Virus record (IMG/VR): IMGVR_UViG_3300042308_000140
Location: 1 to 26,145 of that record
Length of the DNA: 26,145 nucleotides
Direction: 5' to 3' (one strand)
Origin: a virus
Each line of letters begins with the position of its first letter. The stretch's first letter is position 1. The notes beneath the pieces are model-generated. The model made no database searches. It was not told the DNA's origin and saw only the letters and a program-made list of their open reading frames with translations. Positions 5,840 through 17,981 of this stretch are shown piece by piece. A program made the position numbers and the translations under genes.

Positions 5840-6453
5840 GCTCAATAAATTTCGAATCAATCGACCAGACTTATCCAGTGGCTGGTCAAGACAATAATAG
5901 TCAAGGATTTAGGGATAATTTTACCTATATCAAGTCAGCCTTTACCACTACCAAAGCTGAAATTACTGCGTTAGAGACTAACACAGCAAAATTGAACGAC
6001 GCCAATGATTTTGGCGGCGGTATATTATCTAATGCACAACTGCAAGAAGTTTACACACAATTTTCTAATAAAGGCACATTTACATTTAATGCCAGCACTG
6101 GTGCTACTCCCGAAGTTGCTATCAATGTCGGTGATGCAGAATTTTTTAATGTAATTTTTGCAGTGTCAAATGCTACACCTTCCGTGTCGTATAATCCAGA
6201 ATTCACAGTGAGACTGAGCGGATGGCCTGTCAGTAATCTTCATGCTAACATCAAAATTTCTTTTAGCGGCGGCGCGGCTGACTTTACTCCGAGATTTACT
6301 TTTCTAACTACCGCAGGAATTTTTAGATTAAGCACAAATTTAGACACTACTGGTAGAACATTAAGCACTGGTGGGGAAACCAAAGTTGTTGAACTATATT
6401 CTAATGACGGTGGTATAACGGTGTTTGCTAATCTTATCGGAACATATCTATAA
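5836..6453 (+). CDS. Virion structural protein, unknown family
   Basis: The 205-aa product starts with a hydrophilic helical segment (NSQGFRDNFTYIKSAFTTTK, about 21-40) like the N-terminus of the fibre protein at 1147 (NTGDDLRTAFEKVNANFEFL). It then becomes a beta-rich domain with GGxL, TFTFNAS and several alternating hydrophobic strands. The shared N-terminal helix suggests both proteins attach to the same virion partner. The gene overlaps its upstream neighbour by 4 bp and its downstream neighbour by 1 bp (TAATG), so it is part of the same translationally coupled structural run. No catalytic motif is visible. Confidence 0.62.
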   Translation: MSSINFESIDQTYPVAGQDNNSQGFRDNFTYIKSAFTTTKAEITALETNTAKLNDANDFGGGILSNAQLQEVYTQFSNKGTFTFNASTGATPEVAINVGDAEFFNVIFAVSNATPSVSYNPEFTVRLSGWPVSNLHANIKISFSGGAADFTPRFTFLTTAGIFRLSTNLDTTGRTLSTGGETKVVELYSNDGGITVFANLIGTYL

Positions 6454-6686
6454 TGTCACATCCATTAAGTGAAGATTTTAGTCAACTAAAGGATGCTGAG
6501 ATCGAACAGCGTATTCTAGATTTGTCAAAAAAATATTGGCAAACTCAAAATGCCAACGTGCAACGACAAATAACCATGTTTTTAGACATGTATAAAACTG
6601 AGATGCAACATCGTAGGCAACAACAACTCAATCAATTGTATCAAAAACGCAGTAAAGATCTTGACAATCTCATCAATGTCAGTTAA
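6453..6686 (+). CDS. Small helical protein, unknown
   Basis: A 77-aa, almost entirely helical, Gln-rich and charged protein (LKDAEIEQRILDLSKKYWQT at about 12-31, QHRRQQQLNQLYQKRSKDL at about 52-70). It probably forms a coiled coil. No membrane segment, cysteine or known motif is visible. It begins in the stop codon of the structural gene upstream (TAATG) and ends just before a strong promoter, so it is the last member of the structural transcription block. It is likely a real gene because of coupling, length and gap-free packing. It could be a scaffold or small assembly factor, but nothing in the sequence proves that. Confidence 0.6.
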   Translation: MSHPLSEDFSQLKDAEIEQRILDLSKKYWQTQNANVQRQITMFLDMYKTEMQHRRQQQLNQLYQKRSKDLDNLINVS

Positions 6687-6689
6687 AAT
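6661..6689 (+). promoter_or_regulatory. Sigma70-type promoter, TTGACA-17-TAAAAT, leaderless
   Basis: A perfect -35 box TTGACA (6661-6666) is separated by 17 bp from the -10 box TAAAAT (6684-6689, 5 of 6 to consensus). It lies inside the end of the 77-aa gene. The -10 box ends six bases before the ATG at 6696, so transcription should start at or next to the A of the start codon. No ribosome binding site lies in front of that ATG. Confidence 0.72.
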
Positions 6690-6695
6690 GTATGC

Positions 6696-7199
6696 ATGAG
6701 AATAAACAATCTTGGTCAGTCTGTATTTGACAGCAACGATATAATTGATATAATTTATCAAGGGCATATAGACAAAGTGTCCAAATTAATTGTAGATCAA
6801 GATACTGAAATTTTGCAGTTACAAACAGCATTGAATATCGAATTCCAACAACCCACAACTGACACTGATCAAGAACAGTTCGATTATCGCAATCAAAATA
6901 ATTGGATTATGCCTCAGCAGTACAAAGATCTAGACATAGAACAATGGATTTACGATCAGGCGGCACCCTGGGATCCAGATCATGCTAGAGTACAGTTAGA
7001 ACTAGCAGAATTTCGCAACAGAAATATGATCGATCTGTTGCGTTGGTTAAAATACTTTGTAGATACCTGCAGAGCAAACAACATAGTATGGGGCGTAGGG
7101 CGTGGATCGAGTGTGGCCAGTTATGTGCTGTATTTGATCGGTGTTCATCGAATAAACAGTATTAAATATAATTTAGAGTTCTCTGAATTTATGAGATAA
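6696..7199 (+). CDS. Stand-alone fragment like DNA polymerase III alpha palm
   Basis: A 167-aa protein. Its last 70 residues follow the DnaE (Pol III alpha) segment leading into the palm: ELAEFRNRNMIDLLRWLKYF, then NNIVWGVGRGSS at 128-139, YVLYLIGV, and YNLEFSEFMR at the very C-terminus. In DnaE the equivalent is (E)L..I....f..YFLI...i..A...I..GPGRGSAAGS...Y.L.IT..DP..y.LLFERFLNPER. The product stops exactly where DnaE would go on to its catalytic PDxDxD aspartates, so polymerase activity is not expected. The first about 90 residues are acidic, Gln/Asp-rich and unrecognised. It has its own near-consensus promoter and no ribosome binding site. The next gene has its own strong RBS and encodes something unrelated, so this looks like a complete small gene, not a broken polymerase. 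Function unknown. Confidence 0.75.
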   Translation: MRINNLGQSVFDSNDIIDIIYQGHIDKVSKLIVDQDTEILQLQTALNIEFQQPTTDTDQEQFDYRNQNNWIMPQQYKDLDIEQWIYDQAAPWDPDHARVQLELAEFRNRNMIDLLRWLKYFVDTCRANNIVWGVGRGSSVASYVLYLIGVHRINSIKYNLEFSEFMR

Positions 7200-7223: not shown

Positions 7224-7448
7224 ATGGCAGCTAGACAAGCACAAAGACAAGTATACAAATCAATGCTGGGAAAAGAAATTGACCTAGAAAAACTACGTAT
7301 GCGTAACGAAATGACTCCGGCAGTGGGCAATGCTCGGGTAAATGCTCGCGGAGACGAATTAGGCCCAGGCGGTAAAATAATTCGTAAACGTGAAGATGTT
7401 ATGACAGAGTATTATCAAAATAATCCCAACGCCGTTAAAGACATTTGA
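7224..7448 (+). CDS. Small conserved-type phage protein, unknown
   Basis: A 74-aa basic protein with a very good ribosome binding site (AAAGGAGAG, 6-7 nt before ATG). The N-terminal part is helical (QRQVYKSMLGKEIDLEKLRM, about 8-27). It is followed by the compact, conserved-looking segment NEMTPAVGNARVNARGDELG (28-47) with two NAR motifs, and a basic GGKIIRKRED stretch. The pattern resembles small proteins I associate with marine T4-like phages, but I cannot name a function. It precedes the GroES-like gene by 9 bp and is probably co-transcribed with it. Confidence 0.65.
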   Translation: MAARQAQRQVYKSMLGKEIDLEKLRMRNEMTPAVGNARVNARGDELGPGGKIIRKREDVMTEYYQNNPNAVKDI

Positions 7449-7457
7449 AAGACACAC

Positions 7458-7841
7458 ATGAATGTAGTCAAAGGAAAATTAAAACCATTGCGTAACAACG
7501 TGTTGGTTATTGACATGGGGTTTGAAGAACAGAAAACTGCGTCGGGCATTGTTCTACAAAGTGACGACGGCAAAGCGCACGGTGTTAAACCTCGGTGGGC
7601 AAAAGTTTGGGCAGTGGGTCCTGAACAAAAAGATGTTCATGTAGGTGAATGGATCTATGTAGAACACGGCCGATGGACTAGAGGTATTAAGGTAGAAGAA
7701 GATGGCAAGGAAGTAATTATTCGCAGGATAGATACCGAAGCCATTCTTTTACAAGCAGACGAGAAACCCAACGATATCTATATTGCTAGAGGTATCGAAG
7801 TTCAGGAAGCAGTTGAAGCATACAGATTGGAAAACAAGTAA
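7458..7841 (+). CDS. GroES/gp31-like co-chaperonin
   Basis: The 127-aa product has the GroES (Cpn10) outline: N-terminal LKPLRNNVLVIDMG (8-21), then a mobile-loop region with EQKTASGIVLQSDD at 24-37 (GroES: ..K..GGIVL), the core strand RWAKVWAVGPE (about 46-56), DVHVGEWIYVEHGRW with VGEWIYV aligning to the vGD.v.f segment, and a C-terminal IIRRIDTEAILL like GroES LIM.E.DILAI. It would cap the host GroEL and adapt it to phage proteins, as T4 gp31 does for the capsid protein gp23. At 127 aa it is longer than GroES (about 97) and nearer to gp31 (111), with an extra helical C-terminal tail of about 25 residues. It overlaps the MazG-like gene by 1 bp. Confidence 0.85.
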   Translation: MNVVKGKLKPLRNNVLVIDMGFEEQKTASGIVLQSDDGKAHGVKPRWAKVWAVGPEQKDVHVGEWIYVEHGRWTRGIKVEEDGKEVIIRRIDTEAILLQADEKPNDIYIARGIEVQEAVEAYRLENK

Positions 7842-8209: not shown

Positions 8210-8236
8210 AAAGGGTCTAGACAGACCCTTTCTTTT
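8210..8236 (+). terminator. Rho-independent terminator after the mazG-like gene
   Basis: A perfect 9-bp stem AAAGGGTCT / AGACCCTTT (8210-8218 and 8223-8231) with loop AGAC, followed by CTTTTT. It begins 3 bp after the MazG-like stop codon. The right arm and loop also contain the -35 element of the next promoter. Confidence 0.85.
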
Positions 8237-8246
8237 TCTATATAAT
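8218..8246 (+). promoter_or_regulatory. Sigma70-type promoter, TAGACA-17-TATAAT, leaderless
   Basis: The -10 box is a perfect TATAAT (8241-8246). The -35 box TAGACA (8218-8223, 5 of 6) is exactly 17 bp upstream and lies within the terminator hairpin. The -10 box ends six bases before the ATG at 8253, and no Shine-Dalgarno sequence separates them, so the transcript should be leaderless. Confidence 0.75.
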
Positions 8247-8252
8247 AGCAAG

Positions 8253-8675
8253 ATGAAGATAGGATTTACTTGCTCAACCTTTGACTTGTTCCACGCAGGT
8301 CATATCATGATGCTCAAAGAAGCACAAACACAATGCGACTATTTGATAGTTGGCCTACAAACTGATCCAACTATTGATCGTCCCGAAAAGAACAAACCAG
8401 TTCAAGGTATATTTGAACGCTACGTACAACTACAAGCCTGTAAGTATGTAGATGAAGTTGTAGTTTATGCTACCGAAAAAGAACTCCTAGATGTATTGCA
8501 ATCTTATCCTATTGATGTTAGAATACTAGGAGACGAGTATGCAAGTAAATCATTTACAGGCGACAACTTAGATATGGAACTGTATTTTAATCGCAGAGAA
8601 CACAGTTTTTCAACAACAGAATTACGTCAACGTGTAGTTGATGCAGAAAGGATTAAAAATGGAAGTACAACCTAA
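8253..8675 (+). CDS. Cytidylyltransferase-like nucleotidyltransferase (TagD type)
   Basis: The 140-aa protein has the HxGH nucleotidyltransferase fold. It starts with strand IGFTCSTFDLFHAGHI, with the HAGH motif at 14-17, then LIVGLQTDPT (31-40), the family segment ERYVQLQACKYVDEVV (55-70), a central ILGDEY (91-96), and the second signature STTELRQR at 120-127. This is the layout of glycerol-3-phosphate cytidylyltransferase (TagD) and related CTP transferases, close to their usual about 130-aa size. It would activate a phosphorylated sugar or polyol with CTP; the actual substrate is unknown. It is first in an operon with the 55-aa membrane protein and the clamp loader, and is expressed from the promoter immediately upstream. 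Confidence 0.82.
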   Translation: MKIGFTCSTFDLFHAGHIMMLKEAQTQCDYLIVGLQTDPTIDRPEKNKPVQGIFERYVQLQACKYVDEVVVYATEKELLDVLQSYPIDVRILGDEYASKSFTGDNLDMELYFNRREHSFSTTELRQRVVDAERIKNGSTT

Positions 8676-8826
8676 AGATACAAGCAAGGGACATTTTTAT
8701 GTCAGCCTTGTAAAAAGTATTACTCGCATTGGTGCTGGCGGATGTTTAATCCAAGGTAACTTAATTGCTGCCGGCGGTCTATTAATTTTAGCAGAAATGT
8801 TAGGTATTGTTGAGGAACTTGTATGA
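8659..8826 (+). CDS. Small membrane protein, 55 aa
   Basis: The start at ATG 8659 is chosen because AAAGGA lies 6 nt upstream. A longer frame back to 8638 is possible but has no ribosome binding site. The N-terminal 20 residues are polar (MEVQPKDTSKGHFYVSLVK). Residues about 24-50 are Gly/Leu/Ile/Ala rich (GAGGCLIQGNLIAAGGLLIL) and should form one transmembrane helix, with an acidic C-terminal end. It overlaps the cytidylyltransferase end by 17 bp and the clamp-loader start by 4 bp, so it is translationally coupled in the operon. No function can be assigned. The tight coupling supports its being a real gene. Confidence 0.65.
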   Translation: MEVQPKDTSKGHFYVSLVKSITRIGAGGCLIQGNLIAAGGLLILAEMLGIVEELV

Positions 8827-9737
8827 ATAATCTATGGGTAGAAAAATATCGCCCCAACACATTAGATGGATATGTGTTTAGAGACACTAACCAACGGCAA
8901 CAAATTGAAAATTGGATTAGAGAAAAAACCATTCCACATCTGTTGTTCAGCGGACATGCCGGCATTGGAAAAACCACCTTGGCAAAGATTCTTTTGAATT
9001 TATTGGATACCAACGATCTTGATGTGTTAGAAATCAATGCCAGTCGTGTTAACTCAGTTGATGATGTTAGAAATAAGATCACTAACTTTGTACAGATGAT
9101 TCCGTTTGGAGACTTCAAGGTTGTGTTGTTAGATGAGGCTGATTATTTGAGTCACAATGCTCAAGCAGCACTGCGTGGACTGTTAGAAGAATATCATACT
9201 ACTGCACGTTTTATTCTCACTTGCAATTATCCCAACAAAATTATTCCAGCACTACACAGTCGGTGCCAAGGATTTCATATTGAGAAAGTTGATCCTACAG
9301 AATTTACTGCTAGGGTTGCTACAATTCTTGTTGAAGAAAACATAGAATTTGATCTCGACACCCTAGACACTTATGTCAAGGCAAAATATCCCGACTTACG
9401 TAAATGTATTAATACTGTGCAAATGAACAGCAGTACCGGAAAACTGATTTCACCAAATGAAGTAGATGCCAATTTGTCCGACTGGCGTATCCAGATGGTG
9501 GAATTATTCAAACAAGGAAAAGTGAGTCAGGCTAGAAAACTTGTTTGCAGTCAGATTAGACCAGAAGAAGTAGAAGAAATTTTTAGATGGCTCTACGACA
9601 ACATCGAATTGTTTGGTCAGGATGTTCAACAAGAAAAAGCCATCCTAATTATTAAACAAGGTCTGGCAGATCACACACTGGTAAGTGATCCAGAAATTAA
9701 TCTAGCCGCAACTATGGTTAGACTAGGTCATTTATAA
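8823..9737 (+). CDS. 44: Sliding-clamp loader ATPase subunit (T4 gp44-like)
   Basis: The 304-aa AAA+ protein starts WVEKYRPNTLDGYV, the conserved opening of RFC/gp44 clamp-loader subunits. It has Walker A GHAGIGKT at 44-51, Walker B VVLLDEADYL (100-109), sensor-1 ILTCNYPNKI (131-140) and the arginine-finger motif SRC at 146-148, then a lid and C-terminal collar domain. T4 gp44 is 319 aa, so length fits. It would load the sliding clamp (gp45) at primer ends for replication and, in T4, late transcription. GAGGAA precedes the ATG. The expected small partner gp62 and the clamp are not in this window; the gene is instead followed directly by a terminator. Confidence 0.93.
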   Translation: MNNLWVEKYRPNTLDGYVFRDTNQRQQIENWIREKTIPHLLFSGHAGIGKTTLAKILLNLLDTNDLDVLEINASRVNSVDDVRNKITNFVQMIPFGDFKVVLLDEADYLSHNAQAALRGLLEEYHTTARFILTCNYPNKIIPALHSRCQGFHIEKVDPTEFTARVATILVEENIEFDLDTLDTYVKAKYPDLRKCINTVQMNSSTGKLISPNEVDANLSDWRIQMVELFKQGKVSQARKLVCSQIRPEEVEEIFRWLYDNIELFGQDVQQEKAILIIKQGLADHTLVSDPEINLAATMVRLGHL

Positions 9738-9758: not shown

Positions 9759-9785
9759 AAAAAGGCTCCCGAAGGAGCCTTTTTT
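9759..9785. terminator. Bidirectional terminator between clamp loader and phoH
   Basis: Inverted repeat AAAAAGGCTCC / GGAGCCTTTTT (9759-9769 and 9774-9784) with loop CGAA, flanked by A-runs on the left and six T on the right. It therefore works in both directions for the convergent clamp-loader and phoH genes, and it overlaps the phoH stop codon by two bases. Confidence 0.9.
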
Positions 9786-10500
9786 ATTCACCGTAAACTG
9801 ATAACACTTCTTTTACAGCAGTATGTCTTTCGATATCCTTTTTATCAAAATGTTGCAAGTCTATACACTTTAATGATTTGTGTTCATTAATATGGCGTAT
9901 AAAATCAATGAGTCCGTTGTCATCTAGTCTGTCTGCTTGATTCAGATCTCCAGTGACAATCATTTTAGAACCTTCTCCCAATCTTGTAAGCAACATCTTC
10001 ATTTGATTAGGGGTAGCATTTTGCATTTCATCTGCAATAATATATGCATTTTTAAAGGTTCGGCCTCTCATGTAGGCTAATGGGCTGATTTCGATCACAC
10101 CTTCGTTGATCATGTCTTCTATATCTTTTTTTAGATAATATTCTCCTAGAACATCAAAGATAGGTCTTGTCCACGGAGCCATCTTTTCCTGCATAGTTCC
10201 TGGTAAGAATCCCAAATCTTCATCCACTGACACGGCGGGACGAGTAACTATAATTTTGTCAAATTTACCTTCTTGAAACAATTTAACGCCTACCTGCACT
10301 GCCAGCATGGTTTTACCCGTGCCGGCTGGCCCCACAGCAAAAACTATGTTTTTATTGTCGTCTTGTAATTTTTCAAGATATTGTACTTGGTGGCCGTTTC
10401 GAGCGTGTAACGACACTCGAAGCTTCTTTGCTGGAAGATAGGTTTGAAAATCAATCACGTTTACTTCAGAATTAAAGCGTTTTTTCACTCTTTTACTCAT
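9784..10500 (-). CDS. phoH: PhoH-like P-loop ATPase
   Basis: The 238-aa protein is a PhoH core domain: Walker A GPAGTGKT at 57-64, IIVTRPAVSVDEDLGFLPG (83-101), the Walker B strand AYIIADEMQNAT (152-163), sensor-like MIVTGDLNQAD (180-190) and a short C-terminal HTAVKEVLSVYG. Phage PhoH proteins are nucleotide-hydrolysing proteins of debated role (RNA metabolism or phosphate stress), common in marine phages. It is the only gene on the minus strand here. GGAG lies about 8 nt before the ATG on that strand, and an inverted-repeat leader lies just upstream (10523-10560). Confidence 0.93.
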   Translation of the reverse strand: MSKRVKKRFNSEVNVIDFQTYLPAKKLRVSLHARNGHQVQYLEKLQDDNKNIVFAVGPAGTGKTMLAVQVGVKLFQEGKFDKIIVTRPAVSVDEDLGFLPGTMQEKMAPWTRPIFDVLGEYYLKKDIEDMINEGVIEISPLAYMRGRTFKNAYIIADEMQNATPNQMKMLLTRLGEGSKMIVTGDLNQADRLDDNGLIDFIRHINEHKSLKCIDLQHFDKKDIERHTAVKEVLSVYGE

Positions 10501-10522
10501 CTAGTTCTCCTACTTTAAGTAA

Positions 10523-10560
10523 GTAGGACCGTAGGGACCGCCTATCCTCACAGGTCCTAC
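10523..10560 (-). repeat. Inverted repeat in the phoH leader
   Basis: GTAGGACC (10523-10530) and GGTCCTAC (10553-10560) form a perfect 8-bp stem around 22 nt. On the minus strand the left arm could instead pair with the inner copy GGTCCCTAC, because two near-identical copies (GGTCCCTAC then GGTCCTAC) stand in tandem. The element lies 23 bp before the phoH start and would sit near the 5' end of its mRNA. Confidence 0.6.
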
Positions 10561-10584
10561 ATAACTATTTACTGATATTGTCAA
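10558..10584 (-). promoter_or_regulatory. phoH: Possible phoH promoter, perfect -35 but weak -10
   Basis: On the minus strand a perfect TTGACA (10584-10579) is followed after 15 bp by TATGTA (10563-10558, 3 of 6 to consensus). The -35 is convincing, but the short spacer and weak -10 make this tentative; an activator-dependent promoter is possible. Confidence 0.35.
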
Positions 10585-10616
10585 AAAGTAAACTGATATG
10601 ATTTGTTTTTAGGTCA

Positions 10617-10636
10617 ACTAAATACTGTGGTATATT
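10617..10636 (+). promoter_or_regulatory. Possible promoter region before the 10648 gene
   Basis: Two overlapping candidates are present. ACTAAATA (10617-10624) has the TAAATA core of T4-type late promoters. An extended -10 element TGGTATATT (10628-10636) ends 11 nt before the ATG at 10648, without a recognisable -35. Either could drive the block starting at 10648. Confidence 0.35.
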
Positions 10637-10647
10637 AACGAGACACT

Positions 10648-11205
10648 ATGGCTGACATTTTAGAAGTTATTAAAAATATAGAAAACTTATACAGTAATAA
10701 TACTGCACTGAGCGTCTTAAAAGACTATGAACGTGTGTTAGAAATTCTGGATATTTACGTCTACGAAAATTGGTTAGAAGGCGAATTATTAGAGGGACCC
10801 CGTGTTGATCGACATTGGGTAACTTGTAAATTCATGTGGCCGAAAGAAAACATGCCCAATCCCCGGGCTGCTAAACGACTGCTTGAACACGACTGTAGAG
10901 TAAAATTTGAAGAAAGTTTTATTCTACAACCTCGCAAAATTGAAAGTCCTGACGATTTTCGTCCTGGCACTAAGAAAGGCAAGTTAGATCGTCATGCTAT
11001 TTGGGTAGTGACTATCTCCATGCCTAAAAAATTAGTGTTTGACATGTTTGAAGGTTACATGGATAAATTACGCAACGAACGTTTTGGTCGCAACAGCAGA
11101 GTAGATTCTAGTCAAGGACAAGATGTTGCTGCTCCAGCAGTTGCACCGGCTGCTGGAGCACCGGCAGTCACTGGAACTCCACCAGTACCAGGAGCAGCAG
11201 TATGA
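10648..11205 (+). CDS. Conserved-type T4-like phage protein, unknown
   Basis: The 185-aa product has a helical N-terminus (ILEVIKNIENLYSNNTAL), then a compact domain with HWVTCKFMWPKENMP (about 56-70), RKIESPDDFRPGTKKGKLDRH (about 96-116) and the strand IWVVTISMPKKLVFDMF. It ends in an Ala/Pro/Gly-rich low-complexity tail (about 150-185). The folded part resembles a protein I associate with marine T4-like phage genomes, where it is annotated as hypothetical or structural. No catalytic motif is evident. It overlaps the next gene by 4 bp, and the two probably act together. Confidence 0.65.
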   Translation: MADILEVIKNIENLYSNNTALSVLKDYERVLEILDIYVYENWLEGELLEGPRVDRHWVTCKFMWPKENMPNPRAAKRLLEHDCRVKFEESFILQPRKIESPDDFRPGTKKGKLDRHAIWVVTISMPKKLVFDMFEGYMDKLRNERFGRNSRVDSSQGQDVAAPAVAPAAGAPAVTGTPPVPGAAV

Positions 11206-11936
11206 ACCTTAATGAAGAGTTAAGACCTGCCGATTTGAGATACCTTGTTGACAATGTATTTGAAATTGATTCATACAGCAGTAAAATGGGCAATGATCAA
11301 GATGTTTCTGTAATTTCTTTCAATGTAAAAAGTAAAGATGCTGCCGAGGATCTAGAAAGTTTTATTGAAAAAGGTTATAAATTTGTGTTAGACGCAGATG
11401 TTAGCCCGGGCGAAGTCAAAGAAGGCAAGTACAAAGTATTTGTTGAAATGGAACGTGATAAAAATCTAAGTTCGCGCATTGTGGAAATATTAGATGGTGT
11501 AAAGAAATTAGTGGACACTGAAGATTTTAGATTTAGATACTATAGAAGTTTTAGATCAAATCTCGCTGACCTCGAGTCGTTGACTGATGCTGTGCCAACT
11601 ACACCCAATCAGTATGAAAACAAAATCAATGAAGTTCAGATGGAAAATGTGGATAACTTTTTTAACAAAAGTTATTTAGAAAGCATTGATCTCGATCATG
11701 ACCAATTGACGCTAGAAAAACCATTCAACGGATCGTTGAATTTGATAGTATCTGATTTTGGTCGCAAACAAAGAATTTACGAATCTGTTCAAGGAGCATT
11801 CCAAATGAACTCTAGTGATATTTCTGAAATATTATATCTTACAAAATTCATCGGCCCGTATAACATTAACAAAATTGACAATAAATTTATTATAGAAAAT
11901 AATGGATATGCATTGGTAGCGGAGTTGAGAAGATGA
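11202..11936 (+). CDS. Phage protein of unknown function, coupled to 10648 gene
   Basis: A 244-aa acidic protein starting MNLNEELRPADLRYLVDNVFEIDSY. The first half looks like an alpha/beta domain (VSVISFNVKSKDAAEDLESF, YKVFVEMERDKNL), followed by an acidic linker and a C-terminal half ending GPYNINKIDNKFIIENNGYA, suggestive of small beta strands. No signal peptide, membrane segment or known active-site motif was seen. GGAG lies 9 nt before the ATG. It overlaps both neighbours by 4 bp, so it is coupled to the unknown protein upstream and to the spanin-like gene downstream. Confidence 0.62.
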   Translation: MNLNEELRPADLRYLVDNVFEIDSYSSKMGNDQDVSVISFNVKSKDAAEDLESFIEKGYKFVLDADVSPGEVKEGKYKVFVEMERDKNLSSRIVEILDGVKKLVDTEDFRFRYYRSFRSNLADLESLTDAVPTTPNQYENKINEVQMENVDNFFNKSYLESIDLDHDQLTLEKPFNGSLNLIVSDFGRKQRIYESVQGAFQMNSSDISEILYLTKFIGPYNINKIDNKFIIENNGYALVAELRR

Positions 11937-12424
11937 ATCAAATTTACTGGATGCTGGATCTAATACCGGACGCTGTGTTAAGTGGGCTCTATTGGGCCAT
12001 AATCATTGCTGGTATTACAGGAGTACTTGCCGGTTGGTTAGGCAAGTGGATTCCATTTTACGGAAATTATGTTAAAGTACTGCAACCACTTGGCATTGTG
12101 TTACTAGTTTTAGGTGTATGGCTGCGTGGCGGCTATGACACAGAAATGGCCTGGCGTGAGCGAGTGTCTAAACTTGAAGCAGCAGTTAAGATAGCAGAAG
12201 AAAAATCACAGCAAACAAATACAGTGATCCAAGAAAAAATAGTTGAGAAAACTAAAATTATCAAGGAAAAAGGCAAGACACAGATTGAATACATTGATCG
12301 TGTGATTAAAGAAAAAGAAGAAGTAAAAATATTCATTGAGAAATGTCCAATCCCGCAAGATATCATTATTGAACATAACAAAGCGGTAGATATGAATAAC
12401 GCCGCAGAAAGGCCAAAGAAATGA
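11933..12424 (+). CDS. Inner-membrane spanin-like protein (Rz type)
   Basis: The 163-aa protein has two hydrophobic segments (about 16-35 and 49-65) with a Gly/Trp turn between, then a long charged coiled coil (about 72-133). It ends in CPIPQDIIIEHNKAVDMNNAA at 138-158. A Cys-Pro-x-Pro stretch followed by a His-Asn/Asp-x-Ala helix near the C-terminus is typical of phage inner-membrane spanins. The following gene encodes a small lipoprotein, overlapping by 4 bp, as expected for an i-spanin/o-spanin pair that fuses inner and outer membranes at lysis. Unusually, there are two membrane segments where classical Rz has one; an added holin-like hairpin is possible. Confidence 0.68.
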   Translation: MNQIYWMLDLIPDAVLSGLYWAIIIAGITGVLAGWLGKWIPFYGNYVKVLQPLGIVLLVLGVWLRGGYDTEMAWRERVSKLEAAVKIAEEKSQQTNTVIQEKIVEKTKIIKEKGKTQIEYIDRVIKEKEEVKIFIEKCPIPQDIIIEHNKAVDMNNAAERPKK

Positions 12425-12687
12425 GAATTTTAATTCTTAGTTTAACACTGTTGTTAACAAGTTGTGCCACTTCTATTCCTGTTAAGCCTAAGTTTCCCGA
12501 AGTACCGCAAATATTAAAAGAACGTTGCGAAAATCTTAAAAAGATTGAAGGCAATCAAGTGGCTATAACAGAGATGTTAAAAGTAGTAATTCATAACTAT
12601 ACTCTGTATCACGAGTGTTCTACAAAAGTAGACGGTTGGCAAGAGTGGTATGAATCACAAAAGAAAATATACGAAAGCATCAAATGA
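12421..12687 (+). CDS. Outer-membrane lipoprotein, o-spanin (Rz1-like)
   Basis: The 88-aa product has a lipoprotein signal peptide (MRILILSLTLLLTSC), with lipobox LTSC and lipidated Cys15. The mature part is proline-containing at first (SIPVKPKFPEVPQIL), then helical, with ENLKKIEGNQVAITEMLKVV and the family-like NYTLYHEC...KVDGWQEWYESQK. Two extra cysteines (31 and 61) frame the helix. Such short lipoproteins encoded immediately after an Rz-like gene serve as outer-membrane spanins. It overlaps its neighbours by 4 bp on both sides. The assignment as an o-spanin rests on lipobox, size and position. Confidence 0.72.
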   Translation: MRILILSLTLLLTSCATSIPVKPKFPEVPQILKERCENLKKIEGNQVAITEMLKVVIHNYTLYHECSTKVDGWQEWYESQKKIYESIK

Positions 12688-12905
12688 AAATTGTATTAAT
12701 TATTGCAGCAATGTTGTTAGCAGGCTGCGCCACTAATCCAGATGTTCAAAAATCAATATCTAAAGATCAAACTATGGATAGGATGGCAAAGGCTGCATTG
12801 ATAAATGAAATGCTAGTCAGCCCCGATGCTCATGTAAGAGCCAAAGGTGCAGCCATAGCAGAAAAATTTTTAATAGAACCAAAGAAAAATATATTCGGAT
12901 TTTAA
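12684..12905 (+). CDS. Second small lipoprotein, unknown role
   Basis: The 73-aa product has a clear lipoprotein signal (MKIVLIIAAMLLAGC, lipobox LAGC, Cys15), followed by ATNPDVQKSISKDQTMDRMAKAALINEM, a short amphipathic helical region, and a basic/hydrophobic C-terminus (EPKKNIFGF). Like the o-spanin gene before it, the lipid Cys is residue 15 and is followed by Ala-Thr. It could be a third spanin component, an alternative o-spanin or an outer-membrane effector such as superinfection exclusion. Coupled by a 4-bp overlap to the o-spanin gene. Confidence 0.68.
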   Translation: MKIVLIIAAMLLAGCATNPDVQKSISKDQTMDRMAKAALINEMLVSPDAHVRAKGAAIAEKFLIEPKKNIFGF

Positions 12906-12917
12906 AAGGAGCAAATA

Positions 12918-13481
12918 ATGTCATTGGTTGATTCAGTATTAAAGTTAGTAACAAAAACACCAAAAGATCCGGACGCACCTAAGCCTCCAGTAGGATCACG
13001 ATCAGAGCGTGAAGCAAAACTAAAAGACAAAGCAGGTATGGTTATTAGCATCTTTGCATTGTTGTTGGCAGTGAATGCATGGTACGGCGGCAAGTTATCT
13101 AGTACAGTATTAAACAATACACTGGGTGCTAACAATACATGGGCACAATATCAAGCCAAAGCAGGACGTGGCGTTACATACGAAATTGCCGCCAAGACAA
13201 CTACTGATCCAAAACTAAAAGAAGAATTCCAGGCAGAGAAAGAGCGCATGGATGCTGACAAGAAAGAGATTGCTGTTAAAGCAAGAGAAATGGAGGCAGT
13301 GCGTGAAGAGGCTAAAAAATCCAGTCCTTGGATTGGTTATGCAAGCACAGCCTATCAGTTGGCTATTGTTGTGTTATCAGCAAGTATTTTAGCAGTTAGC
13401 GTGGCCATGTTCTGGGGCAGTTTTGTTGTTGCAGGCTTTGGTATCCTACTAAGTCTAAACGGCCTATACCTTTGGTTCTAA
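12918..13481 (+). CDS. DUF4337-like membrane protein
   Basis: The 187-aa protein has transmembrane segments at about 39-57, 143-163 and 165-184. Between them is a long charged helix (about 95-135) containing NNTWAQYQAKAGR (72-84). A first TM helix followed by a (N)xW..YQAK segment, a helical hairpin and two C-terminal TM helices is the pattern of DUF4337 proteins, whose function is unknown. A strong ribosome binding site (AAAGGAGC) precedes ATG 12918. In this position an envelope or lysis-timing role is plausible but not shown. The stop lies 2 bp before the lipase start. Confidence 0.68.
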   Translation: MSLVDSVLKLVTKTPKDPDAPKPPVGSRSEREAKLKDKAGMVISIFALLLAVNAWYGGKLSSTVLNNTLGANNTWAQYQAKAGRGVTYEIAAKTTTDPKLKEEFQAEKERMDADKKEIAVKAREMEAVREEAKKSSPWIGYASTAYQLAIVVLSASILAVSVAMFWGSFVVAGFGILLSLNGLYLWF

Positions 13482-13483
13482 AA

Positions 13484-14206
13484 ATGAAAACACAATTATT
13501 ATTAGAGTTTGCCAACATAGCGCAAACTACCTACGACAATCCTAAAACATCCACTGCCAAGTTCAAAGCCTTGGGATATAAGATTATTCAATTCTTTGAC
13601 ATTGATGGGGCTCAGGCATATCTATTGACCAACGGTACTATCACTGTGCTTTCATTTAGAGGTACTGAAGTAACTGAAAAGTCAGATGTGTTGGCAGACT
13701 TAAAAGCTGGCAAGAATATCGAAGCCTGTGGCGGCAAGGTGCATGTTGGCTTTAAAGGTGAAATCAATAAACTATGGCCCACTATCTCAGCAGCACTAGA
13801 AGCCAATCCAGGCAACCTATACGTAACTGGACACAGTCTTGGTGCAGCCATGGCCACAATCGCTGCCAGTCGTATGCAGGATCGTGTAACAGCATTGGTA
13901 ACATTTGGATCACCTAGAGTTGGCAATGCAGAGTTTGTTAAGAGTTTGACTGTTGAACATTACAGAGTGCAGAACAACTGTGACGATGTGACCAAAGTTC
14001 CTTTTAGACTCATGGGATTTGATCATCACGGCACACACAAGTATATGAACTTCCATGGAGAGTTTAGAGACCTAACTCCTTGGCAACGTGTGAAAGATAT
14101 GATTCGCAGTAGACTAAAGGCCAGGGCAAAAGGGCAAAAGTACATTGGTGTGTTTGATCACATGATGGCCAACTATATTGCCAAATTAGAGAAGTTAGGA
14201 ATGTAA
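13484..14206 (+). CDS. Class 3 lipase-like serine hydrolase
   Basis: The 240-aa product has the Lipase_3 (PF01764-like) alpha/beta-hydrolase signatures: oxyanion region VLSFRGTE at 55-62, VHVGFKGE (86-93), nucleophile elbow VTGHSLGAAMA with Ser118, VTFGSPRVGN (139-148) and DDVTKVPF with acid Asp167 or Asp168. The catalytic His is probably His226 in FDHMMANY, with HHGTHKY at 181-187 as a structural motif. Predicted to hydrolyse acylglycerols or phospholipids. The frame can be read from TTG 13472, overlapping the upstream gene, but ATG 13484 is preferred. No signal peptide is present, so export would need the holin or cell lysis. Its place among spanin, lipoprotein and holin genes suggests envelope breakdown. 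Confidence 0.88.
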   Translation: MKTQLLLEFANIAQTTYDNPKTSTAKFKALGYKIIQFFDIDGAQAYLLTNGTITVLSFRGTEVTEKSDVLADLKAGKNIEACGGKVHVGFKGEINKLWPTISAALEANPGNLYVTGHSLGAAMATIAASRMQDRVTALVTFGSPRVGNAEFVKSLTVEHYRVQNNCDDVTKVPFRLMGFDHHGTHKYMNFHGEFRDLTPWQRVKDMIRSRLKARAKGQKYIGVFDHMMANYIAKLEKLGM

Positions 14207-14226
14207 AAATTAAATAGGAGCGGAAA

Positions 14227-14781
14227 ATGAGTGAAGAAGTTAAAAGCGCAAGCGAAGTAAAAAAAGAAGATTGGATGAACAGCAAATGGCGTCCAATGAT
14301 GGGATGGATGTATATGCTGGTCTGCACCATGGACATGGTTATATTTCCCATCTTATGGAGTCTGTTACAGACCTTTACTCATTCTCCAATCACACAATGG
14401 AATCCACTAACACTGCAAGGTGCTGGTCTATTCCATATTGCAATGGGTGCAGTTTTAGGTATTGCGGCATTTGGTCGCACACAAGAAAAACTTGGAGGAG
14501 CCAATAATGGCGGAATACAAGCACCAACAACAGGATTTGCGGGCGGGTCTTCAACATTTGGCCAACCGACAACAGGAGGCTTCGGCACATCCAGTCCAGG
14601 TTTTGGGGCAGTCCCTCTGGCATCAACAGGCTTTGGCGGAGGCGGGTTTGGAAGCGCACCTTCAACACCAAGTTGGGGCACAACACCGATAACACCAACA
14701 CCAGGCATGCCAAGTGCTAACAGACGTCCATCTGGACCTGCACAGCCGTTCGACAGCGATTTTATGCCGCCAAGAGATTGA
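14227..14781 (+). CDS. Holin (GTA/3TM-type) with Gly/Phe/Pro-rich tail
   Basis: The 184-aa product opens with a charged segment and NSKWRPMMGWMYM (18-30), then a TM helix at about 27-48, a second at about 62-84, and FGRTQEKLGG (82-91). The WRPxxGW...lT.....L......GRTxEK outline is that of the gene-transfer-agent/3TM holin family (PF11351-like). Beyond residue 90 come about 95 residues of low-complexity sequence with repeated TGGFG, PGFG, GGGFG and PTTG elements, ending in a polar acidic tail. Ordinary relatives end soon after the EK motif, so this extension is unusual. It would form the inner-membrane lesion that releases endolysin. AGGAG lies 6 nt before the ATG. Confidence 0.75.
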   Translation: MSEEVKSASEVKKEDWMNSKWRPMMGWMYMLVCTMDMVIFPILWSLLQTFTHSPITQWNPLTLQGAGLFHIAMGAVLGIAAFGRTQEKLGGANNGGIQAPTTGFAGGSSTFGQPTTGGFGTSSPGFGAVPLASTGFGGGGFGSAPSTPSWGTTPITPTPGMPSANRRPSGPAQPFDSDFMPPRD

Positions 14782-14806
14782 CCTTTACTATCTAAGACTG
14801 TATAAT
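14778..14806 (+). promoter_or_regulatory. Sigma70-type promoter, TTGACC-17-TATAAT, leaderless
   Basis: The -35 box TTGACC (14778-14783, 5 of 6) overlaps the holin stop codon and is 17 bp from a perfect TATAAT (14801-14806). The -10 box ends 7 nt before the dnaJ-like ATG at 14814, with no ribosome binding site between them. Confidence 0.75.
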
Positions 14807-14813
14807 TAGTAGT

Positions 14814-15671
14814 ATGAACTACTATGAAACATTAGGTGTAAAAGAAAACGCAGATCAGGATGATATAAAAAAGGCCTACAAAAAATTGGCCATGAAACAT
14901 CATCCTGATCGTGGCGGCGACGAAAAAACTTTTCAATCAATAAGCCAAGCATACGACACCCTTGGCGACGCTGCCAAACGACAACAATACGACAATGAAC
15001 AATTGCATCGGCCACATATTCATGTACGCACAGGTGGGTTTGGTGGATTTGAAGATATATTTGGCCAAGCATTTAGTTTTGGACAACAGGGTGGTCCATG
15101 GGATCCATTTTCTCAAGGTATGAGAAAAAATAGAGATTTAAACATTAATTGCAAGGTATCATTCAAGGACAGTTTTTTAGGAAAACAACTCGAAGCAACC
15201 TACACATTGCCGTCGGGTAAAAAACAAACAGTGGCAATTAACGTGCCTCCGGGCATCAGTCATGGACAAACTATCAAGTATCAAGGATTAGGTGACGATG
15301 CACATCCAAATCTGCAACGTGGAGATTTAAACGTCACCGTGATAGTTGAATCAGACCCGTTGTATCAACGAGTAGGCGACAACATAATTTTTATGTTGCA
15401 AATCTCTGTGTTTGAAGCAATGATTGGATGTAATAAAAAAATTCAATCATTAGATGGAACCAAGTTAGATTTAAAGATACGAGCAGGTACACAACATGGC
15501 GCCGAGTTTGTATGCAAGGGTCGTGGGTTTAATAATTCAACCAACGGAAGAACTGGAGACCTTTTAGTCAAGGTAACTGTCAGTATACCCGAAATAACCG
15601 ACATTATTTTAGTTGATCGAATACTGAAATTACAAAATGAATTTAATAATCACAATAAATCAACTGGTTGA
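14814..15671 (+). CDS. DnaJ/CbpA-like J-domain co-chaperone
   Basis: The 285-aa protein has a full N-terminal J domain (YYETLGVKENADQDDIKKAY, then KLAMKHHPDRGG with the HPD motif at 30-32, and AYDTLGDAAKRQQYD). A short G/F-rich linker (GGFGGFEDIFGQAFSFGQQGG, about 74-94) follows, then the two beta-barrel substrate-binding domains (NRDLNINCKVSFKDSFLGK; VAINVPPGISHGQTIKYQGLG; GDLNVTVIVESDPLYQRVGDNI). There is no CxxCxGxG zinc finger, so it is of the CbpA (type II) class and of near-normal length. It should stimulate host DnaK. Driven by its own leaderless-type promoter and followed by the ClpA-like gene. Confidence 0.93.
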   Translation: MNYYETLGVKENADQDDIKKAYKKLAMKHHPDRGGDEKTFQSISQAYDTLGDAAKRQQYDNEQLHRPHIHVRTGGFGGFEDIFGQAFSFGQQGGPWDPFSQGMRKNRDLNINCKVSFKDSFLGKQLEATYTLPSGKKQTVAINVPPGISHGQTIKYQGLGDDAHPNLQRGDLNVTVIVESDPLYQRVGDNIIFMLQISVFEAMIGCNKKIQSLDGTKLDLKIRAGTQHGAEFVCKGRGFNNSTNGRTGDLLVKVTVSIPEITDIILVDRILKLQNEFNNHNKSTG

Positions 15672-15697
15672 TTGTTGATAAAAAGTCTGTTATAATA
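15669..15697 (+). promoter_or_regulatory. Sigma70-type promoter, TTGATT-17-TATAAT, for clpA-like gene
   Basis: TTGATT (15669-15674, 4 of 6, overlapping the dnaJ stop) is 17 bp from a perfect TATAAT (15692-15697). The predicted start near 15704 gives a leader of about 25 nt that carries the AAAAGGA ribosome binding site of the ATG at 15729. Confidence 0.65.
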
Positions 15698-15728
15698 AAA
15701 TAAATCTTGTATTAAAAGGAAAAATGAA

Positions 15729-17981
15729 ATGGTAGAACCAAGTAGCGAACTGCAAATGGTGTTTGATAAAGCTATAGATGTTGCTAAAAAATTAAATCAT
15801 GAGTATATCACATTAGAACATTTATGTTTTGCCATGTTATGCGAAGAATCATTTAGTAAATGCGTTTCTGGATTTGGTGCAGATACTGACTATATACGTA
15901 AAAATCTCGAACATTATCTCAAAAACAAATTAAGTGAAATTGTCATTGCAGATGGTGTAACTAAACCTAAAAAAACTCAGGCCGTTGAACGTGCTCTCAA
16001 TCGTGCATTTACACAGGTCCTGTTTAATGGCCGTCAAAAAATTGAATGTACTGATGTATTTCTTGCCATTATGAGTGAGAAAAAATCTTTTGCATTCTAT
16101 TACATACAACAGGCTAACATTGACAAAGATAAATTTGCTGACTATCTACACAACGAATTAGACAGCACCGATGACGAAACAGAGAATCAGTCATCTAAAG
16201 CACTTAAGGCGTTTACAACTAATCTTAATGAATCAGTAACCAAAGGCAAAGTTGACCCTGTTATTGGACGAGTAGAAGAACTTGAAAATATTGCCCTAGC
16301 GTTGGGGCGTCGTAGTAAAAATAATGTTATCTTAGTGGGCGATCCAGGTGTTGGTAAAACTGCGATTGCAGAAGGACTAGCGTTTAATATTGTCAACGGT
16401 GCTGTTCCAGAATTTCTTAAAAATTACACTGTGTACAACCTAGACATATCTGCCATGCTAGCCGGTAGCAAATACCGTGGTGACTTTGAAGAACGATTTA
16501 AACTGGTGTTGGCAGCACTACAGAAAAAAGGCAAGACTGTTTTATTCATTGATGAAGCACACATGATCAGTGGTGCTGGATCTGCCAGCAACAGTGCTAA
16601 CGATCTTGCCAACATGATGAAGCCTGCACTGAGCAAAGGCAATATCAAAGTAGTAGCATCAACTACCTGGGAAGAATATCGCAAGCACTTTGAAAAGGAT
16701 CGCGCACTGATGCGTCGATTCCAGCGCATCACTGTTGATGAGCCAACACAAGAAATGTCTGTACAGATTCTCAAAGGTATTAAGAAGTACTACGAAGATT
16801 TCCACAAAGTTAAAATCAAAGACGATGCTATTCAGGCAGCAATCAAACTCAGTGTGAAATATCAAACAGATAAAAAATTACCAGACAAGGCAATTGATTT
16901 GATTGATTGTGCATGTTCACGATTTAATATTAAATTGGCTGGCGATCGAGTCATCGGAGAAGAAGAAATTCAATTTGAACTTAGTAAAATGATTCAACTG
17001 CCTGCTGAAGTAATTATGGAATCAGAATCCAGTAATCTTAGTAATTTAATGAGCAACTTGCAGAGTGAGGTGTATGGGCAAGATTCTGCTATCGAGACTG
17101 TGGTTGATAAAATTCTTGTGGCCCGTGCAGGTCTTAAATCAGAAAACAAACCTGTTGGATCTTTTGTATTCATGGGCCCAACAGGTTGTGGCAAGACTGA
17201 AACTGCTAAATCGTTGAGTAAACATCTTGGTGTTAAGTTATTGCGATTTGACATGAGTGAATATCAAGAAAAACACAGTGTAAGTAAACTGATTGGATCA
17301 CCTCCCGGTTATGTGGGATTCGAAGAAAACGCAGGATTGCTAATCACGCAGATTCAAGAAAATCCCAATGCTGTGTTGTTGTTTGACGAAGTTGAAAAAT
17401 CACATCCTGATGTGTCAACTATCTTGTTGCAGATGATGGACAATGGATTTATCACTGGATCAAATGGTAAAAAAGCAGACTGTCGTAATATTGTGTTGAT
17501 CTTAACTACCAATGCCGGCGCACAGGCCAGCGAGAAAAATCACATAGGATTTGGTCAACAAGAAAAAGATTACAGCGATGCTGATATCAAGAAGTTTTTT
17601 GCACCAGAATTTCGCAATCGACTAGACGGTATCATTACGTTTGCCAAACTCAGCAAAGAAACAATGATTAAAATTGTTGGTAAGTTTATGGTTGAACTTA
17701 GAGATCAAGTACATGAAAAAGGTATTAAAATTAAACTGCGTGATGACGCTGTGGATTGGTTGGTCAAACAAGGATTCGATAGTAAAATGGGGGCAAGGCC
17801 ATTACAACGAGTCATTGACAAGGAAATTAAACGTCCGTTGGCCAAAATGATGTTGTTTGGAGATCTTAAGAACGGTGGCATCATCACTATTGGTATTGTT
17901 GACAATCAATTGGTCATAATTCCAAAAGTTAAAATTGCTAAATTAGAGTATCATGAGCAATCTTCAACAGATCAAAGTTAA
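15729..17981 (+). CDS. ClpA-type AAA+ unfoldase with IGF ClpP-docking loop
   Basis: The 750-aa product has the full ClpA order and length (E. coli ClpA is 758): Clp_N repeat domain (about 1-140, with YITLEHLCFAML), D1 AAA+ with Walker A GDPGVGKT at 204-211 and DEAH at 275-278, pore segment GSKYRGDFEERF, then directly D2 with Walker A GPTGCGKT at 483-490, FDEVEKSHPDV (552-562), and APEFRNRLD. There is no M-domain coiled coil between D1 and D2, so it is not a ClpB disaggregase. HIGFGQQ at 605-611 places IGF in the position of the ClpP-docking loop, suggesting it can hand substrates to a ClpP, which the phage does not encode here. The upstream ATG at 15724 reads MKW-stop, so ATG 15729 is used. 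Confidence 0.94.
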   Translation: MVEPSSELQMVFDKAIDVAKKLNHEYITLEHLCFAMLCEESFSKCVSGFGADTDYIRKNLEHYLKNKLSEIVIADGVTKPKKTQAVERALNRAFTQVLFNGRQKIECTDVFLAIMSEKKSFAFYYIQQANIDKDKFADYLHNELDSTDDETENQSSKALKAFTTNLNESVTKGKVDPVIGRVEELENIALALGRRSKNNVILVGDPGVGKTAIAEGLAFNIVNGAVPEFLKNYTVYNLDISAMLAGSKYRGDFEERFKLVLAALQKKGKTVLFIDEAHMISGAGSASNSANDLANMMKPALSKGNIKVVASTTWEEYRKHFEKDRALMRRFQRITVDEPTQEMSVQILKGIKKYYEDFHKVKIKDDAIQAAIKLSVKYQTDKKLPDKAIDLIDCACSRFNIKLAGDRVIGEEEIQFELSKMIQLPAEVIMESESSNLSNLMSNLQSEVYGQDSAIETVVDKILVARAGLKSENKPVGSFVFMGPTGCGKTETAKSLSKHLGVKLLRFDMSEYQEKHSVSKLIGSPPGYVGFEENAGLLITQIQENPNAVLLFDEVEKSHPDVSTILLQMMDNGFITGSNGKKADCRNIVLILTTNAGAQASEKNHIGFGQQEKDYSDADIKKFFAPEFRNRLDGIITFAKLSKETMIKIVGKFMVELRDQVHEKGIKIKLRDDAVDWLVKQGFDSKMGARPLQRVIDKEIKRPLAKMMLFGDLKNGGIITIGIVDNQLVIIPKVKIAKLEYHEQSSTDQS

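What the first reader, a model, noticed from the sequence alone, without database searches (positions are those of the whole stretch)
6696..7199. Phage protein made of the pre-catalytic part of DNA polymerase III alpha
The last 70 residues track DnaE from the helix before the palm through GVGRGSS to YNLEFSEFMR, then stop just where DnaE continues with its catalytic aspartates. The downstream DNA is a new gene with its own RBS, and this gene has a near-perfect promoter, so it is not an obvious broken polymerase. A catalytically empty palm fragment could mimic part of the host replicase, for instance to bind its clamp, exonuclease or template, or to block it. I am not aware of a described role for such a piece.
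Basis: partly seen in the sequence, partly recalled or inferred. Interest (0 to 1): 0.72.

Follow-up and report, generated by a model that had tools for sequence, protein, structure and literature searches.

The report
Half of a split viral DNA polymerase
This small phage protein is one half of a stripped-down copy of the bacterial DNA-copying enzyme that large phages make as two separate proteins; the two-part enzyme was predicted in 2021 but I found no report that anyone has tested it, so what it does is still open.

Summary
ORF 6696-7199 (167 aa) matches DNA polymerase III alpha (PF07733, E 2.6e-11) through GVGRGSS and stops just before the catalytic aspartates. It is not a relic, and probably not a decoy. 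All 160 IMG/VR homologous loci examined stop exactly 35 residues after the same glycine, and dN/dS is 0.05-0.12. The missing half exists as a second, distant gene of about 190 aa (phrog_11778). In 84 of 84 IMG/VR loci it starts within six residues of the aspartates (usually MPDIDIDF). It keeps DxD, KxD, xRP and FKKxHA but lacks the thumb and part of the fingers. Eleven of 11 relatives of at least 220 kb carry one N-gene, one C-gene and a family B polymerase. No fused form turned up in 50,697 phage records. Best reading: the NTP-binding half of a two-chain minimal C-family polymerase. Iyer et al. 2021 (PMC7824862) already described this split enzyme, so the gene is a new member of a known, apparently untested kind. 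New here: the exact, uniform split point, and a conserved sigma70-type promoter placed for leaderless transcription of the N-gene. The window (26 kb) is too short to contain its own C-gene.

The parts
6696..7199 (+). N-unit of the split minimal Pol III alpha (167 aa, phrog_11127)
   Evidence: PF07733 E 2.6e-11; phrog_11127 E 2e-43 over residues 3-167; AlphaFold2 pLDDT 87.6, top nine PDB matches all Pol III alpha
6981..7193 (+). Stretch homologous to the DnaE palm N-terminal part (residues 96-166)
   Evidence: Pfam PF07733 positions 24-94
7092..7112 (+). GVGRGSS motif (residues 133-139), the proposed nucleotide triphosphate-binding loop
   Evidence: G133 and G135-R136-G137-S138-S139 identical in 77 of 77 representatives
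7194..7199 (+). Fixed end point: last residue Arg167 and stop codon, immediately before where DnaE continues to the catalytic DxD
   Evidence: 160 of 160 loci end 35 residues from the same G; R167 in 77 of 77
6661..6689 (+). Sigma70-type promoter TTGACA-17-TAAAAT ending 6 nt before the ATG (would give a leaderless mRNA); its -10 hexamer overlaps the stop codon of the upstream gene
   Evidence: 11 of 12 match; present at 5-8 nt from the ATG in 77 of 77 representatives, against 6 of 452 control gene starts
7224..7448 (+). Small downstream ORF (74 aa, phrog_14844) that follows the N-unit
   Evidence: a small ORF also follows the N-unit in MIJ3, GAP32, RaK2, XacN1 and Phosso
7458..7841 (+). GroES/gp31-like co-chaperonin, conserved neighbour
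   Evidence: PF00166 E 1.5e-7; chaperonin or GroES annotated nearby in MIJ3 and Phosso, 'head morphogenesis' in GAP32 and RaK2
8823..9737 (+). Clamp loader large subunit (gp44), conserved neighbour
   Evidence: phrog_168 E 5e-78; a clamp loader or AAA-ATPase lies downstream

Best explanation
The 167-aa protein is the N-terminal, nucleotide-binding subunit of a two-chain, minimal family C (Pol III alpha type) polymerase of large T4-related phages. It supplies the GRGS loop and flanking helices of the palm. A second protein of about 190 aa, encoded 15 to 224 kb away in the relatives examined, supplies the metal-binding aspartates (DxD and KxD) and a reduced fingers region. The two associate non-covalently to rebuild one active site. 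The rebuilt enzyme (about 360 aa against 1160 aa for E. coli DnaE) lacks the thumb and has no room for the PHP, helix-hairpin-helix, OB and clamp-binding parts, so it is probably a short-patch or accessory DNA polymerase/nucleotidyltransferase serving the phage beside its family B replicase. Shown here: homology of both halves, the fixed complementary split point, co-occurrence, conservation of catalytic residues, purifying selection. Inferred: physical association, catalysis, and a role in DNA synthesis.
For: N-unit homology. C-unit found as a separate gene in XacN1, RaK2, GAP32, Phosso and in a 356-kb relative whose N-unit is 55% identical to the window's. The C-unit profile matches M. tuberculosis DnaE1 in four collinear blocks, E 6.2e-5; its AlphaFold model (pLDDT 91) has bacterial family C polymerases or entries titled 'DNA polymerase' as all of its first 16 PDB matches. 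D3, D5, K66, D68, R135-P136, K165-K166 and H168 are identical in 55 of 55 C-units. Split point: 160 of 160 N-units end 35 residues after the same G; all 76 distinct IMG/VR C-units start 1-6 residues before the first D, 67 of them with exactly two. Co-occurrence: 11 of 11 records of at least 220 kb hold one of each; of 95 isolate-phage records hit by a joined query, most of those listed have two separate places and none has a single place covering 80%. PolB in 11 of 11. dN/dS 0.05-0.12 for N, median 0.13 for C. Published prediction of the same split enzyme.
Against: No experiment, and no complex could be modelled here. The thumb is missing (31 residues from DxD to HNTG against about 110 in E. 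coli) and so is the fingers segment carrying RRAMGKK (709-715 in E. coli), so templated processive synthesis is uncertain. The C-unit is so diverged that most single sequences stay under the Pfam cut-off. Structural superposition scores are modest (TM about 0.4-0.5 of the query). The window itself does not contain the C-unit (the record is a 26-kb fragment with one PF07733 match).
Confidence: 0.75

Rival explanations
1. The two halves do form one polbeta-superfamily active site, but it no longer copies DNA from a template; it transfers nucleotides to another substrate (a protein, an RNA end or a DNA end).
For: Loss of the thumb and of the RRAMGKK fingers segment with full retention of the metal-binding aspartates; a family B polymerase is present in every genome tested; a DnaQ-like exonuclease is found in only 4 of 11 and no HHH_6 domain in any.
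Against: Parts of the fingers (ALxRP and FKKxHA blocks) are kept, which would be less needed without a template; the C-gene lies in the replication cluster beside primase and helicase in RaK2, GAP32 and Phosso.
Confidence: 0.18
2. The N-unit acts alone as a decoy or inhibitor of the host Pol III.
For: Taken alone it has no catalytic aspartate, and it has its own strong promoter.
Against: A complementary catalytic gene with a matching start point occurs in every long relative; the nucleotide-binding motif is the most conserved part, rather than a host-facing surface.
Confidence: 0.05
3. It is a degraded remnant of a full phage or host dnaE.
For: Phage CBB's authors called its homologue truncated (172 aa, PMC5259590).
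Against: Purifying selection (dN/dS 0.05-0.12); 160 of 160 loci with the same end; a conserved promoter; hundreds of homologous stretches.
Confidence: 0.01
4. The halves are joined by protein trans-splicing through a split intein, as proposed for the family B polymerase of MIJ3 (PMC6892783).
For: A split intein has been described in MIJ3 PolB.
Against: The N-unit ends with no extra residues after the conserved core and the C-unit begins at the catalytic motif, so there is no room for intein halves.
Confidence: 0.01

Closest known systems
Split minimal DNA polymerase III alpha of group 2.2 jumbo phages (Iyer et al. 2021, Viruses 13:63, PMC7824862); PHROGs phrog_11127 (N) and phrog_11778 (C)
   Same: Same N-terminal unit, same far-apart C-terminal unit in relatives, same PolB background.
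   Different: The window belongs to an uncultured metagenomic clade (N-unit 32-39% identical to those of five cultured phages) with a conserved leaderless-type promoter absent in those phages; its own C-unit is not in the 26-kb record.
Bacterial DnaE (Pol III alpha; E. coli DnaE, PDB 2hnh; Taq 2hpi; M. tuberculosis 5lew)
   Same: Homologous palm with GRGS, DxD and KxD, and part of the fingers.
   Different: One chain of about 1160 aa with PHP, thumb, HHH, OB and clamp-binding parts; here two chains of about 167 and 192 aa.
Split family B polymerases (archaeal PolB; gp43A/gp43B of T4-like Aeromonas phages; from my own knowledge, not looked up)
   Same: A polymerase split in two genes that work as one enzyme.
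   Different: Different polymerase family; there the enzyme is otherwise full size.
Split-intein PolB of Pseudomonas phage MIJ3 (PMC6892783)
   Same: A polymerase gene in pieces in the same kind of phage.
   Different: Has intein sequences for proposed trans-splicing; the Pol III halves have none.

Membership tests
Split minimal Pol III alpha (Iyer 2021; phrog_11127 + phrog_11778) | Stand-alone N-unit homologous to the DnaE palm, ending before the catalytic DxD | tested here: met
Split minimal Pol III alpha (Iyer 2021; phrog_11127 + phrog_11778) | Separate C-unit gene with the metal-binding aspartates, in the same genome | tested here: inconclusive
   Not in the 26-kb window, which is a fragment; met in 11 of 11 relatives of at least 220 kb
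Split minimal Pol III alpha (Iyer 2021; phrog_11127 + phrog_11778) | Family B polymerase in the same genome | tested here: inconclusive
   The window fragment was not searched for it; PF00136 in 11 of 11 relatives
Split minimal Pol III alpha (Iyer 2021; phrog_11127 + phrog_11778) | No other Pol III alpha domains in the genome | tested here: inconclusive
   HHH_6 (PF14579) absent in 11 of 11 relatives; PHP and OB domains were not searched
Split minimal Pol III alpha (Iyer 2021; phrog_11127 + phrog_11778) | Polymerase activity of the pair | not testable with these tools
   Needs purified proteins; I found no published test
Bacterial DnaE | Catalytic Asp triad and PHP domain in one chain | tested here: not met
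   The ORF ends before DxD; only PF07733 positions 24-94 match
Split-intein protein | Intein N- or C-part fused at the break | tested here: not met
   The N-unit ends and the C-unit begins flush with the conserved core
Pseudogene / degraded dnaE | Relaxed selection and variable break points | tested here: not met
   dN/dS 0.05-0.12; one break point in 160 of 160

The most novel reading that the evidence does not exclude
The pair is an active family C enzyme of only about 360 residues in two non-covalent chains, without thumb, PHP or clamp-binding parts. It would be the smallest form of the bacterial replicase fold that I know of, doing a job (gap filling, primer handling, or untemplated nucleotidyl transfer) that the phage's family B replicase does not do.
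Probability: 0.45. Interest if true: 0.72.

Novelty: new member of a known kind. Interest (0 to 1): 0.45.

Why it matters
It would show how little of the bacterial replicase is needed for catalysis, and it raises the question why large T4-like phages keep a second, two-part polymerase from another family beside their own. The split falls inside the active site and is the same in every relative examined, so the assembly may be obligate or regulated. Two small proteins make this directly testable. Iyer et al. also used the split enzyme in an argument about replicons before the last universal ancestor, which such a test would inform.

Tried and rejected
Weak C-unit hits in two contigs (G012, G042) lay in a different protein of about 405-420 aa with no Pol III motifs: rejected. 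A search for a fused N+C form with a joined query in IMG/VR gave a few matches that reached past the break point (L347, L324, L349, L321); on inspection all are stand-alone C-units with no N-unit attached. A DnaQ-type exonuclease as obligate partner: only 4 of 11 genomes. The 12-of-12 promoter inside the ORF (6727-6754): not conserved. Co-expression of the halves from the same kind of promoter: the C-unit has none; its ATG mostly overlaps or abuts the upstream stop codon. A PDB profile search with a shallow four-sequence C-unit alignment gave nothing useful; the 55-sequence alignment did. hhalign of the C-unit alignment against the single E. coli DnaE sequence gave only low probability (8%), though over the right region.

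Full report
Observation. The ORF at 6696-7199 (+) encodes 167 aa. Residues 96-166 match the DNA polymerase III alpha family PF07733 (positions 24-94 of 260; E 2.6e-11), and the whole protein matches phrog_11127, 171 positions, labelled DNA polymerase (E 2e-43). Against E. coli DnaE the match runs through GRGS (361-364) to LLFERFL (386-392) and stops; DnaE goes on with SMPDFDVDF (398-406), which holds the catalytic D401 and D403.

It is not a chance fragment. IMG/VR holds hundreds of homologous stretches. In 160 of 160 loci (105 distinct proteins) the protein ends exactly 35 residues after the first G of the GxGRGS motif. The last residue, Arg167, is identical in 77 of 77 representatives. Between the window and eight relatives dN/dS is 0.05-0.12. 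Stand-alone homologues of 169-182 aa occur in the cultured jumbo phages Phosso, MIJ3, GAP32, XacN1 and RaK2, in a similar neighbourhood: N-unit, small ORF, in most a GroES/gp31-like gene, then a clamp loader. MIJ3 also shares the continuation to PhoH, two structural genes, DnaJ and ClpA with the window.

The missing half. In four of these five phages a search with the Pol III fingers domain found a second gene far away: XacN1 ORF228, RaK2 ORF124, Phosso 437 and GAP32_282. They form one family, phrog_11778, which MIJ3 also has. Each starts 1 to about 20 residues before a DIDID motif, contains HNxG, KxDxL, IRP and KxHA blocks, and ends. A profile of 55 such proteins from IMG/VR matches M. tuberculosis DnaE1 (5lew) at E 6.2e-5 in collinear blocks: MPDIDIDF at 413, KMDFL to ALYRP within 566-663, FNKSHA at about 776. 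In the 76 distinct IMG/VR C-units the first aspartate of DxDxD is preceded by only one to six residues, and by exactly two in 67. So the N-unit stops and the C-unit starts on the two sides of the same loop, with only about five residues of DnaE absent between them.

Catalytic equipment. Across 55 diverse C-units D3, D5, K66, D68, R135, P136, K165, K166 and H168 never vary; across 77 N-units W132, G133 and G135-S139 never vary. By position D3 and D5 correspond to E. coli D401 and D403, and K66/D68 to K553/D555. The spacing shows what is gone: 31 residues from DxD to HNTG against about 110 in E. coli (the thumb), and about 30 from RP to FKKxHA against about 115, which removes RRAMGKK (709-715). 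AlphaFold2 gave confident models for both halves (N: mean pLDDT 87.6; C: 91.0). The leading PDB matches of both are Pol III alpha structures (C: the first 16 matches are family C or unspecified bacterial DNA polymerases; N: the first nine are Pol III alpha), though with modest TM-scores of 0.4-0.5 of the query and Foldseek E-values of 0.001 (C) and 0.05 (N) at best.

Co-occurrence. Every record of at least 220 kb that was examined (six IMG/VR contigs and five cultured phages) has exactly one N-unit and exactly one C-unit, 15 to 224 kb apart as laid out in the record; a 180-kb contig also has both. Eight of the eleven were chosen for the N-unit and three for the C-unit, so the agreement is not built in. 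Shorter contigs (111-172 kb) held only one of the two, as expected of fragments. All eleven also have a family B polymerase; none has an HHH_6 domain and four have a DnaQ-like exonuclease. A joined N+C query against 50,697 phage records hit 95 records at 184 places; most listed records have two places, and none has one place covering 80% of the query. The window's relative with the longest contig in the first search (356 kb; N-unit 55% identical) has the C-unit. The window itself is a 26-kb fragment and does not reach the C-unit.

What it most likely is. The protein is the nucleotide-binding subunit of a two-chain minimal family C polymerase. Homology, a complementary split point, co-occurrence and selection are shown; association, catalysis and the biological role are inferred. 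Because the thumb and clamp-binding parts are missing while PolB is always present, an accessory short-patch polymerase or nucleotidyltransferase is more likely than a main replicase. The decoy reading of the first stage is unlikely, because the catalytic partner it supposed to be missing exists throughout the family. A relic is excluded by selection and by the fixed end. Trans-splicing is excluded by the flush ORF ends, unlike the split-intein PolB of MIJ3.

What is known. Iyer et al. 2021 (PMC7824862; [quoted passage not shown] Earlier genome papers noted only a truncated alpha subunit (CBB, 172 aa, PMC5259590) or an alpha subunit (Atu_ph07, PMC6102473). A 2026 jumbo-phage review does not mention it (PMC13282480). 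I found no experimental test in the papers held. The finding is therefore a new member, in an uncultured clade, of a known but apparently untested kind.

What is added. First, the break point is the same to the residue in all IMG/VR N-units examined and lies within six residues in all IMG/VR C-units. Second, in this clade the N-unit gene has a sigma70-type promoter (TTGACA in 74 of 77, 17-nt spacer in 76 of 77) whose -10 hexamer ends 5-8 nt (mostly 6-7) before the ATG in 77 of 77 representatives, against 6 of 452 control gene starts. If transcription starts about 7 nt after the -10, the mRNA begins at or next to the ATG, that is, it is leaderless; this is inference from position. The C-unit has no such promoter and mostly abuts or overlaps the upstream stop codon, so the two halves are expressed by different means.

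Noticed in passing
window 6661-6696, 8220-8253 and about 14780-14814: Three genes (N-unit, cytidylyltransferase-like at 8253, DnaJ at 14814) have near-consensus sigma70 promoters ending 6-7 nt before the ATG, suggesting a class of leaderless transcripts in this phage lineage.
   Followed up: partly
window 6453-6689: The -10 hexamer TAAAAT of the N-unit promoter contains the stop codon of the preceding 77-aa gene, and the -35 TTGACA lies in its coding sequence; the arrangement is conserved across the clade.
   Followed up: partly
L106 2061-2756 (-), L347 1370-2071, L324 1170-1907, L349 1369-2058: In the IMG/VR clade a gene just before, or one small gene before, the C-unit encodes a zinc-finger-like protein of about 230-245 aa beginning with a CxYC...H.CEQKRR motif.
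   Followed up: no
W02 (MIJ3, LR588166.1) 124889-128666: The family B polymerase lies in two frames in MIJ3; the genome paper attributes this to a split intein (PMC6892783).
   Followed up: yes
Salicola phage SCTP-2, MF360958.1 158412-158915: The C-unit match lies across two annotated ORFs (151 and 152), so the C-unit may be further split or its annotation may overlap there.
   Followed up: no
window 9784-17981: PhoH on the minus strand, two virion structural proteins, DnaJ and ClpA-like genes follow the clamp loader in the same order as in Pseudomonas phage MIJ3, placing the window near that group of large T4-related phages.
   Followed up: partly
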